This document shows positions 5,011-46,926 of a stretch of 64,000 nt of DNA, piece after piece. Numbering within the stretch: position 1 is the stretch's first letter; the number at the start of each line of letters is the position of its first letter. The translations under genes and the position numbers were made by a program. The DNA lies in assembly GCF_014640615.1 (NCBI RefSeq), contig NZ_BMHH01000013.1, positions 1,820 through 65,819 on the forward strand, in the 5' to 3' direction. Below the pieces are notes generated by a model that saw only the letters and a program-made list of their open reading frames with translations, was not told the DNA's origin and did no database searches. Origin of the DNA: Paramesorhizobium endophyticum (GTDB lineage Bacteria > Pseudomonadota > Alphaproteobacteria > Rhizobiales > Rhizobiaceae).

Positions 5011-5018
5011 TCCCGGTC

Positions 5019-5069
5019 ATGAACAAGCTCCTTATCGTAGTACGGTCGCGCGTGGGCAGGGTGGTGTAA
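5019..5069 (+). CDS. ilv leader peptide (attenuation)
   Basis: A 16-residue ORF, MNKLLIVVRSRVGRVV, has 9 of its 16 residues as Leu, Ile or Val. It lies just downstream of the promoter and 32 bp before an intrinsic terminator that precedes ilvI. This is the classic layout of transcription attenuation. When charged branched-chain tRNAs are scarce the ribosome stalls on these codons and should prevent terminator formation. The ORF has no Shine-Dalgarno and may be leaderless. Confidence 0.8.
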   Translation: MNKLLIVVRSRVGRVV

Positions 5070-5101
5070 CCATCCGGCGACAGCCTCCCATGCGCGACAC
5101 C

Positions 5102-5126
5102 AAAGGCTCCCTCGGGGGCCTTTTTT
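5102..5126 (+). terminator. Attenuator terminator before ilvI
   Basis: The stem AAAGGCTCC (5102-5110) pairs with 5115-5123 across the loop CTCG and is followed by a run of T. It is the terminator half of the leader-peptide attenuator. Confidence 0.8.
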
Positions 5127-5205
5127 ATTGCCCAAAATCCAGCTAAACGAAACTTTATTGCTCGACGCATCTCTCAAACGAAACGGAACGGTACGGGAAG
5201 AGAAA

Positions 5206-18929: not shown

Positions 18930-19005
<76 letters not shown>

Positions 19006-19073: not shown

Positions 19074-20285
19074 TCACGTTCCGTTCTTGTTCCTAAAAGC
19101 AGCTGGCTCAATATCCTTCCAGCGCTCTTCCATAAGCTTCATAGCGTCCCGCGCCAAGCTCCGGAGCGACACCTCCCTCCCGTAATGTTGCACCATCTGC
19201 GGCGACATATTGCAGATAGCCCCCACCTGATTTTCAGTGCATCCTATTTCCAATAGATTGATGACGGCGTTCTTCCTCAGCCCGTGGAAAACGATCCGAT
19301 TTTCCCGGAAAGGCTTGAATGGCTCCTCATTCATGAGTCTCTGCCATTCGGTACGAAATCCATCAGCCGTCTTGTAAAATTTTGCACGGCCTGCCTCATG
19401 CAGCATGACGCTGTCATTGTTTGGCGCTGAATCGATCCATTTCCGGTATGCCGAATGAATTGGTATCCAGACGGTCTTTTTTGTCTTTTGGGCTTTGACC
19501 GCTATCACGCTTTCTCCAGCCTTTGGCTTTACCATCGCAATGACATCGCCCTGGCGTTGCCCGGTAAAGAATGCAGACATGGCAATACGCTGCATATGAA
19601 TCGGTGCATGTTCGAATAGGATCTCGAAAGCCCAATTGGGCCAAGGCGTCCACGGCTCGCCCCCCGGTATTTTCTCGGTGTGCTCGACCGGATTTATTTT
19701 GCAGAAACCGCGAGGGACGCCCCACGACATCAGGCGAGACAGGAACGCCCGGAATTGATTTGCTGTAGCCGGCGTGTCTCCAAGAGCGTCTATGGCCTCT
19801 TGGGCATCAACCGTGGTCAAATCCACGGGAAGCATATCTCCCCAACTCTCAATGATGAGCTTACCGGACGATGTGTATCCTCGCCGCGTCGATTTCGATA
19901 GGCTCGCCCATACCGGGTTTGAATCGTGCTGAAACGCCTCCACGAGCGCCTTGAAGTCTTTCACGCCCTCGCGCCCACGCTTGATAAGTGCCTCCATCGC
20001 CTTCTCGGCTTGAGGCCAAAACTCCTTATCCTTCAGGTCTGGGAGGCGTTTCCCATCCAAAATGAAGCCTTTGGCATCCTTCTCCAAGGCTTCGCAAATC
20101 GCCAGCCGCTTGGAGAAGTCACGCTCAAGCGGCTCCGGGAGGGAGATGGAAGGCCATGCGTCTTTCGTGTTTCGAAAGCGCGTGTAGAATGTATAGACGG
20201 TTTGAGATCCGTTTTTGCGGCGTTTCGTGACTCTGTGGACGTGCTTAGGCAGCTCCACGGTTCCGCTTTTCCCTAACCTTTTCAC
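19074..20285 (-). CDS. Phage integrase (tyrosine recombinase)
   Basis: It catalyses attP/attB recombination at the neighbouring tRNA-Lys gene. The C-terminal catalytic domain shows the Arg in FFTGQRQGD, the H-x-x-R box in VFHGLRKNAV and the nucleophile Tyr in MVQHYGREVS. The central SAM-like domain is around WASLSKSTRRGY. A GTG at 20285 with GGGAG 9 bases upstream is preferred; an in-frame ATG at 20330 has no ribosome site. Either start overlaps the excisionase-like gene. Confidence 0.93.
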   Translation of the reverse strand: MKRLGKSGTVELPKHVHRVTKRRKNGSQTVYTFYTRFRNTKDAWPSISLPEPLERDFSKRLAICEALEKDAKGFILDGKRLPDLKDKEFWPQAEKAMEALIKRGREGVKDFKALVEAFQHDSNPVWASLSKSTRRGYTSSGKLIIESWGDMLPVDLTTVDAQEAIDALGDTPATANQFRAFLSRLMSWGVPRGFCKINPVEHTEKIPGGEPWTPWPNWAFEILFEHAPIHMQRIAMSAFFTGQRQGDVIAMVKPKAGESVIAVKAQKTKKTVWIPIHSAYRKWIDSAPNNDSVMLHEAGRAKFYKTADGFRTEWQRLMNEEPFKPFRENRIVFHGLRKNAVINLLEIGCTENQVGAICNMSPQMVQHYGREVSLRSLARDAMKLMEERWKDIEPAAFRNKNGT

Positions 20286-20529
20286 GGAATGCAGCTCCCA
20301 TACCTGATGAGCGCTCGGATGATCCGACATTTATCGATCGGTCCAGATCATCTCGATACCAAAACTTTCGGCGCGTCGTGTCAATTACCCGTGGTTGGGG
20401 GTATTGGGTGCCAACGCGCTCCAAGAAATCCTCTACGTGCCGTTCGCCGCAATACGCTGCGGCCATATCGGCCAGCATTCGCGGGGGCCAACTGCCGTAG
20501 GGGATGACGGCGGGACGACGGGTGCTCAT
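20245..20529 (-). CDS. Excisionase-like small HTH protein
   Basis: The 94-residue protein has a central MLADMAAAYCGERHVEDFLE segment and IDTTRRKFWYRDDLDRSI, resembling the winged-HTH/AlpA-type proteins found beside phage integrases. It immediately precedes and overlaps the integrase gene. The position, more than the sequence, supports an excisionase role. Confidence 0.6.
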   Translation of the reverse strand: MSTRRPAVIPYGSWPPRMLADMAAAYCGERHVEDFLERVGTQYPQPRVIDTTRRKFWYRDDLDRSINVGSSERSSGMGAAFREKVREKRNRGAA

Positions 20530-41014: not shown

Positions 41015-42142
41015 ATGAATGTGGCTCTACGTCCCGAACACCTCAACATCCTATCCCTCTGCACCGGAGGCGCTGGCCTCGATCTCGGCGTCGAGCTGGC
41101 AATTCCCAGCGCTCGAACAGTCTGTATGGTGGAGAGGGAAGCCTTCGCCGTCGCGCACCTGGTGTCAGCGATGGAACAAGGTCTCATGGCTCCGGCACCT
41201 ATATGGAGCAATGCCCGAACCTTCGAGGGCCGACGCTGGCGTGGAACAGTGGACGGCCTCATTGGCGGCATCCCGTGCCAGCCGCACAGCCTCGCCGGAC
41301 GTAAGGGCGGCCAGCACGATGAACGCGACCTATGGACAGATGCGCGGCGCATCGTCGTCCAGTCGCGCCCGTGGTTCGTCCTTATCGAGAACGTCACCGG
41401 CATGCTCTCGCCGGGGGATGACGAAATCGCTGGAGCCGAACGGGTTTGGCGAGACCTACGCAAGTTGGGTTTTGCGGTTGAGGGCGGACTGTTCACTGCG
41501 GCGGAAGTCGGCGCGAGCCATGAGCGGGAGCGCATCTTCATCCTCGGCGTGGCCGACGCCGGCGACCCGCGACCACAAAGGCGCGAACAGTTCCAACCAC
41601 TTGGAGAACGGAACGGGAAGGAAGCATCTCGATCAGTTGCCAAACTTTGTGGAGCACCTTTGGTATACGCCCAATGTCCCGAATGGAGGGCGGACGCTTG
41701 CGGAGGATACCAGCCCGACTGGGATCACATCGAACGGAACCAAGCGGCAAGTGGGGCTGGAGAACCAAGCCCGATGGTGGGCGACACCTACCTCATCGGA
41801 GAATGCCAATCGGACGACGCAGATAGCGCCATCCCACGGCAAGACGCATGGTTTGGTATTGGCGGGACAAGCGTCGGACTTTTCCCGCCAGGCCCAAGCG
41901 ACAGTGAGAACTGGCAATCCATCCTTGAAAGAGCGCCGGAGCTTGAACCCGCTTTTCGTCGAGTGGCTGATGGGCTGGCCTCCCGGCTGGACATTGGGCG
42001 TGTGGACCGACTTCGCATGCTCGGGAACGGAGTTGTGCCACTTCAAGCGGCGTATGCGGTCCGTGTTCTTGCAATACGGCTTGCCGCCCGAGGCTGCACC
42101 GGCGCAGCTAGCCTTGTTCGGATGATGGAGGACCACTCTTGA
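41015..42142 (+). CDS. C5-cytosine DNA methyltransferase
   Basis: The 375-residue enzyme has motif I CTGGAGLDLG (16-25), the catalytic Pro-Cys in GIPCQPHS (C88), ENV (125-127), and RERIFILG, and near the C-terminus DRLRMLGNGVVPLQAAYA (motifs IX-X). It methylates C5 of cytosine, for protection against host restriction. From position 41547 on, the +1 frame over the same DNA also encodes a methyltransferase-like C-terminus (see the next entry). The gene ends by TTGA overlap with dnaB. Confidence 0.88.
   Translation: MNVALRPEHLNILSLCTGGAGLDLGVELAIPSARTVCMVEREAFAVAHLVSAMEQGLMAPAPIWSNARTFEGRRWRGTVDGLIGGIPCQPHSLAGRKGGQHDERDLWTDARRIVVQSRPWFVLIENVTGMLSPGDDEIAGAERVWRDLRKLGFAVEGGLFTAAEVGASHERERIFILGVADAGDPRPQRREQFQPLGERNGKEASRSVAKLCGAPLVYAQCPEWRADACGGYQPDWDHIERNQAASGAGEPSPMVGDTYLIGECQSDDADSAIPRQDAWFGIGGTSVGLFPPGPSDSENWQSILERAPELEPAFRRVADGLASRLDIGRVDRLRMLGNGVVPLQAAYAVRVLAIRLAARGCTGAASLVRMMEDHS
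41547..42125 (+). CDS. Overprinted +1 frame with methyltransferase C-terminal signature
   Basis: The +1 frame (open from 41019 to 42125) reads AWPTPATRDHKGANSSNHLE at 41547 and SLNPLFVEWLMGWPPGWT at about 41940-41995, and ends QLALFG. Those are characteristic of another family of phage cytosine methyltransferase C-terminal regions. Skipping one G at 41546 would join frame-1 RERIFIL directly to this frame. It may be made by frameshifting, by internal start, or be an ancestral frame kept without use. No start codon or ribosome site in this frame is obvious. Confidence 0.55.
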   Translation, partial: AWPTPATRDHKGANSSNHLENGTGRKHLDQLPNFVEHLWYTPNVPNGGRTLAEDTSPTGITSNGTKRQVGLENQARWWATPTSSENANRTTQIAPSHGKTHGLVLAGQASDFSRQAQATVRTGNPSLKERRSLNPLFVEWLMGWPPGWTLGVWTDFACSGTELCHFKRRMRSVFLQYGLPPEAAPAQLALFG

Positions 42143-43575
42143 ACGCTCACGCAACAGACATTCGACCATCTCTCCCCGACGCCATTGAAGCCGAACAGGC
42201 GCTTTTGGGTGCCATCCTCATCGACAACGCCGCGTATTGGCGTGTCGCCGCCTTTCTCAAGCCCCAGCATTTCAGCGAGAGAATCCATTCGCTGATCTAT
42301 GAGACGGCGGCCACGATGATTTCCGAGGGTAGGGCGGTCAATCCGGTCACGATCAAGCAATATCTTCCGACTGACCAACCCATCGGTGACATGTCGATCG
42401 CCCAATACGTGGTGCGGCTGGCGACCAATGCGGTGGGCTCGTTCAGCATATATGATTTTGGCCGGGCCGTTCTTGAGATCTGGGCACGGCGGGCGCTTGT
42501 CTCGCTCGCCCAAGACCTGGAATCGCTGGCGCGCAACATGCCGGTCGATATGACACCGGAAAAGATCATCTCCTTGACGGCGGATCGGCTGACACAGATC
42601 GCCCAAGAGGGCAACGAGCGCGCCGGATCGCTCAAGTATGGCGTCCTGCTTCCCAAGGCTGTCGATCGCGCCGCAAAGGCGAGCACGGACAAGCAGGCGC
42701 TTATCCCATGGTTCCTCCCGGAAATCAGTCAAGTCGCCGGCGACATCCGCCGCGGCAACCTCATCGGGTTCATGAGTGATAGCGGGGGCGGCAAAACCTC
42801 GTTCTCCCTCCAGCAATGCCGACACGCCGCGCTTGAGGGTTTCAAATCGGCATTCTTCTCAATCGAGATCACAGATGAGGAAGCAGCGCTTCAGGCCGCG
42901 GCACAGGCGAGCCGGATCAGCCTCGGGCGCTTGGATGGCTGGACCCTCAACACAAAGGAGCAACAGAGCATCGAGGCGGAAATGCTCCGGTCGATGAACA
43001 TGCCGTTCGATATCGTTCCGTTCGCCGAATGCACGTTGTCCGATGTGCGGATCAAAATCGAGGCAATGAAAAAATCCGTCGGGTTGGATCTGGTTGTCAT
43101 CGACCACGCGAAGATGATCAATCTGCCCGGTAAGCCAAACGAGATGTTCGCGGAACGGATCAACGGGCTTTATCGCGGACTTAAGGCCATCGCCAAATCG
43201 TTGGACGTGGCAATCGTCATCCTGATCCAGCGCAATGAAGAGTGGAAGGCGCGGATGAAAGCCGGCGGCTCGCCGCGCCCGACCATTGGGGACGCCTATG
43301 GCGGTTCCGGCGTCCGGCAGAGCCTCGATGTGTGGTTCTCGCTCTATCGGCCCGAACCAATCCTGAAAGAGGCGATTCCAAACGAACGGAACGATACGCG
43401 GCGGGACGAGCTTTGCCGCAAGTACGAGGAAAGCAGGGGCAGGGCGTGGCTGATCAACCATAAGCGCCGGCGCGGCGAGCCAAGCCAGCAACGTGAGATC
43501 AAGTTCGAGGCAGAATACACGCTGTTCTCGTCACAGGCGGCGGACATGCCGGCGGCGTTTGAGGGGTTCTTCTGA
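42139..43575 (+). CDS. DnaB-like replicative helicase
   Basis: The 478-residue protein has the DnaB N-terminal domain (PDAIEAEQALLGAILIDNAA) and a RecA-like C-terminal domain with P-loop SDSGGGKTS (about 213-221), DLVVIDHAKM (Walker B-like), and IQRNEEWKAR. It starts with TTG at 42139, 8 bases after GGAGG; the codon overlaps the methyltransferase stop (TTGA). It unwinds phage DNA at the fork. Confidence 0.92.
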   Translation: MNAHATDIRPSLPDAIEAEQALLGAILIDNAAYWRVAAFLKPQHFSERIHSLIYETAATMISEGRAVNPVTIKQYLPTDQPIGDMSIAQYVVRLATNAVGSFSIYDFGRAVLEIWARRALVSLAQDLESLARNMPVDMTPEKIISLTADRLTQIAQEGNERAGSLKYGVLLPKAVDRAAKASTDKQALIPWFLPEISQVAGDIRRGNLIGFMSDSGGGKTSFSLQQCRHAALEGFKSAFFSIEITDEEAALQAAAQASRISLGRLDGWTLNTKEQQSIEAEMLRSMNMPFDIVPFAECTLSDVRIKIEAMKKSVGLDLVVIDHAKMINLPGKPNEMFAERINGLYRGLKAIAKSLDVAIVILIQRNEEWKARMKAGGSPRPTIGDAYGGSGVRQSLDVWFSLYRPEPILKEAIPNERNDTRRDELCRKYEESRGRAWLINHKRRRGEPSQQREIKFEAEYTLFSSQAADMPAAFEGFF

Positions 43576-44562: not shown

Positions 44563-45005
44563 TGATCGATCCCCGCGTAAAAGCCATCTGCGAGGAATAT
44601 GGGGTCAAGATCATCGATCCGCGCCGCTATCCCGAGATCGGGGAGACGCGGGCCGCCGCGACCATGGAGCGCATTCTGCGAAATTTCGGGGATGAGCATT
44701 TCCGCCTTGTTATGTCCACCTTGGCCGAGACCGCGAATAATAAGCCGCTTCTCGATGAGTACGGGTTCTGGATGGCCTCAGACCTCATCCATGCTTGCCG
44801 GGGCATTATCGACAAGGACGCGTCGGCTTGGCTCGAATTATGGGACGCTCTCCCGCTGGGGCAGCTTCAATATATCGCCCAAGACCTTTCGGGCATCACC
44901 CCGCAACGACATGCCCTCAGCGGGATGGTATACGAGCGTATATTCCGCCGGTTCGGCCCGAACGCCGCCCAGCTTGATCTATTAGACGACAGGAGAACAG
45001 CATGA
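44562..45005 (+). CDS. Hypothetical phage protein (147 aa)
   Basis: MIDPRVKAICEEYGVKIIDP, then LRNFGDEHFRLVMSTLAETA and ELWDALPLGQLQYIAQDLSG. It is a recurring alphaproteobacterial prophage protein type of unknown role. The ATG at 44562 follows GGAGGG; one ATG earlier is also in frame. Confidence 0.7.
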   Translation: MIDPRVKAICEEYGVKIIDPRRYPEIGETRAAATMERILRNFGDEHFRLVMSTLAETANNKPLLDEYGFWMASDLIHACRGIIDKDASAWLELWDALPLGQLQYIAQDLSGITPQRHALSGMVYERIFRRFGPNAAQLDLLDDRRTA

Positions 45006-45631
45006 CGCCCCTTGGTATCTCCGAACTGTTTATCCGCGCCGCAGAGGTGGACCATCGCTTGCCGGACACGGCCAGCCCAAAGACGTTAAAAGCTCAGAAC
45101 CTCCCATATGTCCACGATCAGGCCGACCAGAACGGATGGGGAGAGGAGCGATACCAGGAGGAGCGGGAATCGTTCTTTCGCAGCCGCCTTTCCCATGAGC
45201 AGGTTTCGGAGTGGGAGCTTTGCAACACTCTCATCCTTTTCATAGAGGACGAGACGCGCCGTCGGTGCCTGTGGCATTGGGCGATAGCGCAGGCTGGAGG
45301 GAAGCCCTTCTCGGTCTGGTGCCGGGCTGAAGGCTTTCACGTCGAAACCGGTAGACGGCGGAAAAATCGGGCCATCTTAGAACTTTATGCCGCTCTTGTT
45401 CGCAACGGCTTGATAAATAACGAAAATACCTATTTCGAGATGTTGCGTGTTGGGCCTGAAAACGGGCATATTCACGTCAACATCGGAGACGACGCGCCCA
45501 ACAAACAGCCGGTCACATGGAGGGATGATTTTGCCCTCGTAGATGATGAGACCATTCGGGATTTGGATTGGGCCGAAGCGAGGAATAAGCGCCGCCGCCA
45601 GAAATATGCGGCACGGAAAAAGGCGGCATAG
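45002..45631 (+). CDS. DUF6362-like protein, possible late regulator
   Basis: A basic protein with AAEVDHRLPDTASPKTLKAQ, then DETRRRCLWHWAIAQAGGKP and WCRAEGFHVETGRRRKNRAI, matching the DUF6362 pattern. It ends the early rightward operon right before a large non-coding region and the late genes, the place of Q-type late regulators. The role is inference. Confidence 0.6.
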   Translation: MTPLGISELFIRAAEVDHRLPDTASPKTLKAQNLPYVHDQADQNGWGEERYQEERESFFRSRLSHEQVSEWELCNTLILFIEDETRRRCLWHWAIAQAGGKPFSVWCRAEGFHVETGRRRKNRAILELYAALVRNGLINNENTYFEMLRVGPENGHIHVNIGDDAPNKQPVTWRDDFALVDDETIRDLDWAEARNKRRRQKYAARKKAA

Positions 45632-45639
45632 AAATCCAA

Positions 45640-46690
45640 GAGGGGCCTTTGCCGCAAGGTGGTAAGGGCATGAGGGCATCGGGACCAGAGCGCTGGTGCT
45701 CCCTGATGCACAATCCGGTCAACGTTGCAGTGGGTAATGACCATTGACGGTCCGGCGGGAATAAACTCCGCACCAGCTACCGGCCCCACCCCGCGGACCT
45801 GGGCATGTCACAAAAAGGCCCCTCGATTTCGCAAGGCAAGAATACCAGGGGAAGCCGCTGCGCCCCGACCTTAAGAAGCGCTGGATACGCAACCAGTGCC
45901 AGCGGCCAAGTCGGGAGGGTAGCCCGGCACAAATTCGAGGCATTGCCTCAACGGAATGCGAGGCGGCGGAACCGTATGGATCTGCATAGGTTGTCTTCCA
46001 CCGGCAGCCGTCCCGCCCGCACCAAATGCGAAGCGGCGTCCTAGTGATGCTGCGTGAAAGGACGGACCCGGGACTGGCCCCGCAGAGCCAAGCCGTATCC
46101 GCTTCGCACGAAATGAGAGGCGCGGTTCCAAGGGATTGGGGTTTCCTGATCGCGAGGTAACGTTGCAACGCCGTGCCTCGCACATCTGTCATCGCTTTCG
46201 GGATCGGTACTATCAGGCACCCGAAAGGCGCTGGCAACTAAAGAATGCCCGGTCTTCCACACCGGGCATTCAATGAATGCGAGGTGTGGTGTAAACGGAG
46301 TAGGGGAGGCTTGTATGCTTCCTCGGTGTCGGGTCAAACCGACCGCCTCGCATGTAGCTGACGGCCAGCTTATAGCCGCAGTTGGAGAACGGGTCTGGAA
46401 AAGTCCTTGTAGCCAGACGGCTCGAAAGAGCGCCGACTAGGGCAGATATAACCCCCCGAGCGAAAGAACGTTGGGCGGGATGGGCAATACGGCTCATCCC
46501 GCCAGCGAGTTCGGCGGAAGAAATCAGGACGGCGGCGCTGAAAGCAGAAGCGCGGTGACTGTCCCGGCGGACCTGTGCACGGGTGCCAGACCGACGAGCC
46601 ATTGGCTCGCTGACAAAATATCGGTTAAACCGCCAGCCGGGATAGCGTCCGGCCCGTCTTGAGCAACTCTTTCAAAAAATGCAAGAGTTC
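45640..46690 (+). ncRNA. Candidate large structured phage RNA (about 1 kb)
   Basis: No convincing protein is encoded on either strand. GAGGGGCCTTT (45640-45650) and AAAGGCCCCTC (45814-45824) form an 11-bp long-range helix enclosing smaller stems (45676-45709). Further perfect stems are 46243-46253/46261-46271 (11 bp, GAATGCCCGGT), 46277-46284/46346-46353, 46474-46482/46495-46503 (9 bp), 46595-46600/46604-46609, and 46665-46671/46683-46689. A GAAA tetraloop hairpin is at 46420-46431. Size, setting and density resemble ornate phage RNAs such as GOLLD or ROOL, but family membership cannot be shown here. Confidence 0.6.
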
Positions 46691-46698
46691 AGCCTCGC

Positions 46699-46884
46699 TT
46701 ATTTCGGCCAAGGAGCGATCCCCCTAATCAGCGCGGCACATGCCAGCGCGATATAGAGCGGGATTTCCGCAGCGCCGTCTTCATAGCGTTGGGGCATGTT
46801 TCTGGAGAGGCCCAAGGCTTCCGCCGCCTGCACACGGTTGAAGCCCATCCGCTCGCGCCATGCAGTAAAGTCTTCCGGTTTCAT
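46699..46884 (-). CDS. Small HTH regulator (61 aa)
   Basis: DFTAWRERMGFNRVQAAEAL followed by GLSRNMPQRYEDG is a short XRE-like HTH. It is transcribed leftward, convergent with the RNA candidate. A palindrome (46911-46926) stands just upstream, so it is likely autoregulatory and may control the late cluster. Confidence 0.7.
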   Translation of the reverse strand: MKPEDFTAWRERMGFNRVQAAEALGLSRNMPQRYEDGAAEIPLYIALACAALIRGIAPWPK

Positions 46885-46910
46885 CTCGTTTTCCCGTCTC
46901 AACGCATAGG

Positions 46911-46926
46911 CAATATGCACATATTG
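46911..46926. promoter_or_regulatory. Palindromic operator in the divergent gap
   Basis: CAATATG (46911-46917), spacer CA, CATATTG (46920-46926). It lies between the small HTH gene and the rightward gene at 47046, so it is the likely site of that regulator. Confidence 0.55.

What the first reader, a model, noticed from the sequence alone, without database searches (positions are those of the whole stretch)
45632..46698. One-kilobase gene-free block dense with perfect hairpins: candidate large structured phage RNA
Between the last early gene (stop at 45631) and a small HTH gene there is 1.06 kb in a prophage that otherwise wastes almost no DNA. No frame reads like a protein. An 11-bp long-range helix (45640-45650 with 45814-45824) closes a 185-base domain containing nested stems. 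Downstream are perfect stems of 11 bp (46243/46271), 8 bp (46277/46353), 9 bp (46474/46503), 6 bp (46595/46609) and 7 bp (46665/46689), plus a GAAA tetraloop hairpin. Size, phage setting and hairpin density are those of ornate phage RNAs (GOLLD, ROOL). It may belong to one of these or be a new class.
Basis: partly seen in the sequence, partly recalled or inferred. Interest (0 to 1): 0.85.

Follow-up and report, generated by a model that had tools for sequence, protein, structure and literature searches.

The report
Modular structured RNA of bacterial viruses
A gene-free kilobase in a rhizobial prophage encodes folded RNA assembled from swappable pieces, and its last piece belongs to an RNA family, apparently undescribed, found in viruses of several groups of bacteria, in rhizobial phages often beside transfer-RNA genes.

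Summary
The block 45632-46698 encodes structured RNA; it is neither a protein gene nor chance hairpins alone. It is a chain of domains that recur in other rhizobial phages in other orders. Three have covariation support: A (pseudoknot, 45841-45929), D (46354-46444) and F (46524-46662). F is strongest: of 78 loci chosen only by its 3' hairpin, 73 have a closing helix of at least 7 bp, in dozens of different sequences. F is an RNA class without an Rfam match in phages of alpha-, beta- and gammaproteobacteria and a cyanophage. Arrays lie beside same-strand tRNAs (30 of 98 loci, 0 opposite); three loci hold tRNA-shaped domains with the anticodon arm replaced and one a circularly permuted tRNA-like fold. 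GOLLD and ROOL do not match; the likeness to them (prophage, tRNA island, embedded pseudo-tRNA) is of kind. Best guess: a stable lytic-phase RNA scaffold; function is inferred.

The parts
45640..45824 (+).
   Evidence: Perfect arms; no relative found in the fetched loci; slices here fold no better than shuffles
45841..45929 (+). Domain A: pseudoknot S1 45848-45851/45863-45866, S2 45854-45860/45900-45906, plus 3' hairpin
   Evidence: 47 copies in the set; two S2 pairs with 8 and 9 both-sided changes in 29 sequences; 17 cells against 5.0 shuffled, though the number of such pairs (2) is not above shuffles
45935..45952 (+). Hairpin B, GAGGC/GCCTC followed by AACGG
   Evidence: Recurs before the C domains in relatives by fuzzy pattern; too short for a profile search
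45955..46353 (+). Series of hairpin domains with shared ends (C type: about 45955-46023, 46025-46109, 46110-46184, 46275-46353; also 46187-46236 and 46243-46271); outer strands 45956-45966/46343-46353 could also pair over 376 nt
   Evidence: Inverted repeats and folds; relatives found only for 46123-46173 and 46185-46274, in one locus (L040)
46354..46444 (+). Domain D: GCTG/CAGC and CGGC/GCCG pseudoknot, then a long helix with a GAAA hairpin
   Evidence: 99.1% of cells paired in 13 distinct sequences against at most 48.2% when slid; 4 pairs with both-sided change; the pseudoknot helices themselves hardly vary. 10 of 394 family genomes, own included
46446..46519 (+). Domain E: long hairpin GGCGGGATGGGC/GCTCATCCCGCC
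   Evidence: Two other loci, G305 (L031) and L088, each following domain A there
46524..46662 (+). Domain F: P1 46524-46532/46654-46662, P2 46535-46539/46549-46553, P3 46636-46641/46648-46653, variable arm between P2 and P3
   Evidence: The window copy is one of the 18 sequences the model R3 was built from
46665..46689 (+). 3' hairpin; relatives have an intrinsic terminator at about this point, the window has no plus-strand one here
   Evidence: terminators by eye in L044, L012, L013, L032; window scan

Best explanation
The block encodes composite noncoding RNA of the prophage, read on the plus strand between the replication genes and the terminase genes. SHOWN: it is a chain of separate folded domains, several of which occur in other phages in other combinations; A, D and F keep helices through compensatory changes; F is a widespread phage RNA class without an Rfam match; arrays lie beside same-strand tRNAs and some relatives carry tRNA-shaped domains. 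INFERRED: the RNA is made in quantity in lytic growth as a stable particle or scaffold, broadly like GOLLD and ROOL. F is the constant platform, P1 abutting P3, with two conserved loops that probably bind a common partner. The other domains, tRNA mimics included, are exchangeable cargo, swapped by recombination at the shared ends of their closing stems. Such a build suits capture or decoy of host tRNA-binding or RNA-cutting factors. Rough odds: real conserved structured RNA 0.97; one large RNA rather than several processed ones 0.55; sequestration or decoy role 0.35.
For: Modules in other orders: G305 joins window 45841-45950 to 46445-46534; module maps. Covariation: A, D, F. F in 66 of 67 viral loci outside the training set and in named phages Orimi01, PotUPM1, Persinger, vB_PaeS-D14H. 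Same-strand tRNA within 1 kb in 30 of 98 oriented loci, 0 opposite. tRNA-like grafts. Terminator within 300 nt of F in 8 of 15 rhizobial-type loci against 2 of 39 control stretches. [quoted passage not shown]
Against: No expression data. The 5' domain and most C-type hairpins have no relatives found, and the 5' half does not fold better than shuffles. No plus-strand terminator follows the window copy, so it may be decaying. In the wider F class terminators are less common, 8 of 67 against 2 of 62 and 5 of 254 controls, and same-strand tRNAs within 1 kb were found in 7 of 60 loci with one opposite-strand case, L188 (distances read). For A the number of pairs with both-sided change does not exceed shuffles (2 against 2.1). 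F often stands without A or D, so the array is not an obligate unit.
Confidence: 0.55

Rival explanations
1. A polycistronic array of independent small RNAs and tRNAs: each domain is cut out, as tRNAs are, and works alone.
For: Modules occur apart (A alone beside tRNA-Met, F alone in Pseudomonas phages); 14 of 47 A copies lie within 12 nt of tRNA-Met(CAU); full tRNAs with CCA sit between modules; ar35, a listed sRNA, stands just before module B in L013.
Against: Some domains are nested: a tRNA body inside a helix, variable arms inside the F closing helix. Shared order ending in F and terminator in several relatives.
Confidence: 0.33
2. A cis-acting element: a structured 3' end of the early operon that steers transcription or decay, such as an antitermination or processing site before the late genes.
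For: Position after the replication genes and before terminase in the window; the array starts right after the stop codon in L031, L038 and L049.
Against: F is found in both orientations to its neighbours and near repressor or integrase genes in Pseudomonas phages; large size and tRNA content.
Confidence: 0.12
3. A divergent GOLLD or ROOL RNA that the Rfam models miss.
For: Same setting as described for them: prophage, tRNA island, pseudo-tRNA inside (passages).
Against: No match at E up to 5 in the block; GOLLD model 0 of 10 genomes and records, control silent; the F core is shared by unlike phages without any Rfam match.
Confidence: 0.04
4. A DNA-level element (packaging or recombination hairpins), not RNA.
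For: Covarying pairs of F are mostly Watson-Crick; position near terminase.
Against: Strand agreement with tRNAs (30 same, 0 opposite) and with terminators; G-U pairs in D; tRNA-like domains.
Confidence: 0.04

Closest known systems
GOLLD RNA (Rfam RF02032)
   Same: Prophage setting, near tRNAs including tRNA-Met, embedded tRNA or pseudo-tRNA, conserved 3' part and variable 5' part, large size (passages of PMC12286853 and PMC6582537)
   Different: No covariance-model match; built from modules that also occur apart; F core is 100-240 nt and common in phages without the rest
ROOL RNA
   Same: Phage and prophage RNA near tRNA islands, elaborate predicted structure with pseudoknots (passages)
   Different: No Rfam match
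Alphaproteobacterial sRNA ar35 (Rfam RF02346)
   Same: In one relative, L013, ar35 scores 118.7 bits and ends 4 nt before the module B hairpin
   Different: Not matched in the window block; the other modules have no Rfam match
Phage tRNA arrays
   Same: Full tRNAs sit between modules in several relatives
   Different: No tRNA in the window block; the modules are not tRNAs, and the grafted tRNA bodies lack a normal anticodon arm

Membership tests
GOLLD | Match to the RF02032 covariance model | tested here: not met
   No match in the block at E up to 5; 0 of 10 genomes and records (control genomes silent)
GOLLD | Prophage, near tRNAs, with tRNA or pseudo-tRNA inside | tested here: inconclusive
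   Met by relatives; the window block is in a prophage but has no tRNA in or beside it
GOLLD | Forms a multimeric RNA cage; rises at lysis | not testable with these tools
   Needs cryo-EM and RNA-seq; published for GOLLD (passages)
ROOL | Match to the Rfam model | tested here: not met
   All Rfam families scanned, no match
F class (defined here) | Closing helix P1 abutting P3, P2 with a GAAAGCAG-type loop, P3 with a (G/A)TAGCG loop | tested here: met
   Window copy has all three; match 1.3e-23, but it is one of the 18 training sequences
tRNA array | tRNA genes in the block | tested here: not met
   Only tRNA-Lys at 18930 in the window

The most novel reading that the evidence does not exclude
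Phages of Proteobacteria build large noncoding RNAs from a shared cassette set: a constant F platform plus exchangeable domains that include tRNA mimics with a replaced anticodon arm and a circularly permuted tRNA. Short shared ends of the closing stems serve as recombination points. These RNAs are fast-evolving decoys or cages in the contest with host tRNA- and RNA-targeting defences.
Probability: 0.25. Interest if true: 0.95.

Novelty: new variant of a known kind. Interest (0 to 1): 0.82.

Why it matters
Large structured phage RNAs are few and their functions are open; GOLLD and ROOL form cages of unknown purpose (passages). This adds a class that reaches isolated phages, among them Pseudomonas phages Persinger and PotUPM1, with a small core of about 100-240 nt that can be made and probed in vitro. 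Its modular build and tRNA-like domains give a handle on what such RNAs do. The covariation of F looks strong enough for a database entry, and one copy lies under a hypothetical-protein annotation (Orimi01).

Tried and rejected
Protein-coding reading: six ORFs wholly inside the block, no Pfam match and two chance-level PHROG matches. Among sequences of at least 80 nt, 8 of 18 in A3 and 21 of 73 in A4 have stops in all six frames, with lengths in all classes modulo 3; in A1 and A2 no sequence has stops in all six frames, and one minus frame of D is open in 14 of 14, so those two short alignments do not decide.

GOLLD and ROOL: no match in the Rfam scans. The separate GOLLD search had a silent positive control and my attempt at a better control failed.

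RNAalifold did not find the long pseudoknot helix S2 of A, so it was counted with pairs given by hand. My first D structure was one column off and was corrected. In S2 of A two pairs covary, four depart only by unpaired cells and one never varies.

One of six A-model hits in the order, G456/L129 (E 4e-4), lies in sequence that reads by eye like a protein gene and is probably false. Of 40 genome contigs with the F 3' pattern 10 have an F match below E 0.001; many of the rest are partial matches to the pattern itself and probably chance. phi297, AUS531phi and vB_PstS-pAN do not reach significance with R3 (E 0.44, 0.25, 0.47), although phi297 shows P1 and P2 by eye. I first recalled SRP RNA, HDV-like and other ribozymes as likenesses of F or A; none came from a call.

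Selection effects: A3 sequences were chosen partly for having P1 paired, so P1 counts are biased. avoid that by choosing on P3 alone, but there the best of 20 shuffles of single loci often reached 7-10 bp, so the evidence is the sum over loci; 6 of the 55 listed best helices are not followed by a P2-like hairpin (my reading of the list). A4 is fitted to its model. Loci are not independent: near-identical contigs remain in the counts. The 80 stretches may be a cap.

Flanking genes were called by longest ORF only; of 120 downstream and 118 upstream proteins listed I scanned 91 and 82.

Literature: ten answered searches listed no title that describes A, D or F; I saw listings and, for five papers, passages. 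Only open-licence papers are held; Weinberg 2017 was not held.

Full report
SETTING. A prophage lies beside tRNA-Lys(CTT) 18930-19005 with an integrase at 19074-20330. It has a DnaB-like helicase gene (42139-43575), a gene of unknown function ending at 45631 (phrog_37864), then the block, a small regulator gene (46699-46920, minus, phrog_14076) and terminase small and large subunit genes (48416, 48771).

THE BLOCK ITSELF. Folding energy exceeds dinucleotide shuffles for 46032-46331 (z -3.05) and 46332-46631 (z -4.39) but not for the 5' part. Six ORFs wholly inside give no Pfam match and two chance-level PHROG matches. No Rfam family reaches its threshold; up to E 5 the only listing is a CRISPR repeat family at 17 bits, below its cut-off of 38.

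RELATIVES COME IN PIECES. With the whole block as query, 43 of 394 family genomes match at E<=0.01, own included; the other 42 match over parts, many of them under 50 bases. In G305 window 45841-45950 is followed directly by 46445-46534. Pattern scans of viral contigs gave 17, 17, 32 and 19 stretches for four modules. Laid out, a common order is tRNA or A, then B, one or more C domains, D, optional domains (H, E, tRNA-like), F, terminator, with parts missing or swapped in most loci. Among the 20 larger loci the gene at 45002-45631 has a homologue upstream of the module in five (L031, L032, L038, L044, L049), and a C-terminal match in a sixth (L043).

COVARIATION. A, 29 sequences: 95.3% of cells pair against at most 48.7% when partners are slid; 17 cells with both-sided change against 5.0 shuffled, all in two pairs of S2, so the number of such pairs (2) does not exceed shuffles. 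D, 13 distinct sequences: 99.1% against 48.2%; 4 pairs with both-sided change against 1.5 shuffled. F, 18 sequences: 95.8% against 45.2%; 5 pairs against 1.4 (P1 biased by selection). F, 69 distinct rows fitted to the model: 97.5% against 44.9%; 15 of 20 pairs, 230 cells against 52 shuffled and at most 55 slid.

F IS A WIDE CLASS. A pattern for P3 alone gave 80 stretches in viral contigs, perhaps a cap, and 40 in 257 Gb of genome contigs. Of the 67 newly fetched viral loci 66 have an F match at E<=0.001; part of each score is the P3 pattern itself, which alone gives up to about 22 bits. Of 40 genome loci 10 are below 0.001: Pusillimonas minor, Sneathiella glossodoripedis, Microvirga tunisiensis and MAGs labelled Hyphomicrobiales, Rhodobacteraceae, Alphaproteobacteria, Paracidovorax wautersii, Verrucomicrobiia and, weakly, Mycobacterium and Patescibacteria; MAG labels may be binning errors. 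In 78 loci chosen by P3 alone the bases after P3 find a contiguous helix of 7 bp or more upstream in 73 and 8 or more in 62; the mean best in shuffled sequence is 5.4; 55 distinct helix pairs are listed, 49 of them followed by a P2-like hairpin by my reading. Named phages with R3 matches: Ochrobactrum phage POI1126 (7e-25) and Synechococcus phage Ssp-JY40 (8e-19), both in the training set; outside it Pseudomonas phages Orimi01 (4e-14), PotUPM1 (7e-11), Persinger (7e-10) and vB_PaeS-D14H (1e-8); three further Pseudomonas phages tested were not significant. Genome surveys, own genome counted: R1 (domain A) 6 of 397 in the order, one probably false; R2 (D) 10 of 394 in the family; R3 (F) 3 of 385 in the class. 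The class is thus rare per bacterial genome.

tRNA LINKS. In 98 oriented loci with a module 30 have a same-strand tRNA call within 1 kb and none an opposite-strand one; the calls include degenerate ones that ARAGORN marks tRNA-???. Of 47 A copies 17 have tRNA-Met(CAU) within 250 nt and 14 within 12 nt. Among 60 loci of the wider F set 7 have a same-strand tRNA within 1 kb of F (L153, L156, L159, L164, L173, L202, L241) and one an opposite-strand one (L188) (with F positions). POI1126, a mitomycin-induced, plaque-forming phage (passages of PMC5492332), reads tRNA-Met, B, two C domains, F, tRNA-Gln, terminator. In L012, L068 and L077 the same tRNA body sits in a helix formed by its lengthened acceptor stem, with three different hairpins where the anticodon arm should be; in L116 a tRNA-like cloverleaf is permuted, its acceptor stem capped by a loop and its anticodon-side stem joined to the flanks. 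These are predicted folds of natural sequence. A pseudo-tRNA inside a mycobacterial GOLLD gene is reported (PMC6582537, passages).

TERMINATORS AND CONTEXT. A terminator-like hairpin lies within 300 nt of F in 8 of 15 rhizobial-type loci against 2 of 39 control stretches, and within 190 nt in 8 of 67 R3 matches against 2 of 62 reverse-strand and 5 of 254 random controls. The window copy has none on the plus strand up to 48231. Of 91 downstream and 82 upstream proteins scanned (of 120 and 118 listed), PHROG matches include terminase large subunit and endolysin downstream and DNA primase, helicase and repressor upstream, each in few members. L159 has F, three tRNAs and an RtcB RNA ligase gene in a row.

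WHAT IT MOST LIKELY IS. A composite structured RNA with F as its conserved core. That the domains are RNA folds follows from covariation and from strand agreement with tRNAs and terminators. That they form one large molecule, are abundant at lysis, or act as decoy or scaffold is inference from likeness to GOLLD and ROOL (PMC12286853, passages; a similar likeness was drawn for phage K lncRNAs in PMC9241854, passage).

LIMITS. No expression data. The 5' domain, four of six middle pieces (45955-46023, 46025-46109, 46243-46271, 46275-46353) and the F variable arm of the window have no relatives among the loci fetched. Loci share ancestry, so counts are not independent events. The pseudoknot helices of D and S1 of A hardly vary and so are untested by covariation.

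Noticed in passing
L013 1358-1501: Rfam sRNA ar35 (118.7 bits) ends 4 nt before the module B hairpin of a phage array, so this listed rhizobial sRNA may itself be a phage cassette.
   Followed up: partly
L159 2104-3950: F domain followed by tRNA-Pro, tRNA-Gln, tRNA-Arg and an RtcB RNA ligase gene.
   Followed up: partly
L116 758-852: A natural sequence that folds as a circularly permuted tRNA-like cloverleaf joined through its anticodon-side stem.
   Followed up: partly
L260 2492-2729 (Pseudomonas phage Orimi01): The F RNA lies under a CDS annotated as hypothetical protein, Orimi01_00061.
   Followed up: no
L158, L209: Two F copies in one locus, all at E below 1e-6; weaker second copies in L198 and L207.
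   Followed up: no
L126, about 1425-1590 on the minus strand: Domain A follows tRNA-Met(CAU) directly in a genome of another family of the order.
   Followed up: no
L145 5008-5213: Domain A followed by D, 50 nt apart, on a Rhizobium sp. T136 plasmid.
   Followed up: no
window 5015-5137: Rfam sRNA Atu_C8, 102 bits.
   Followed up: no
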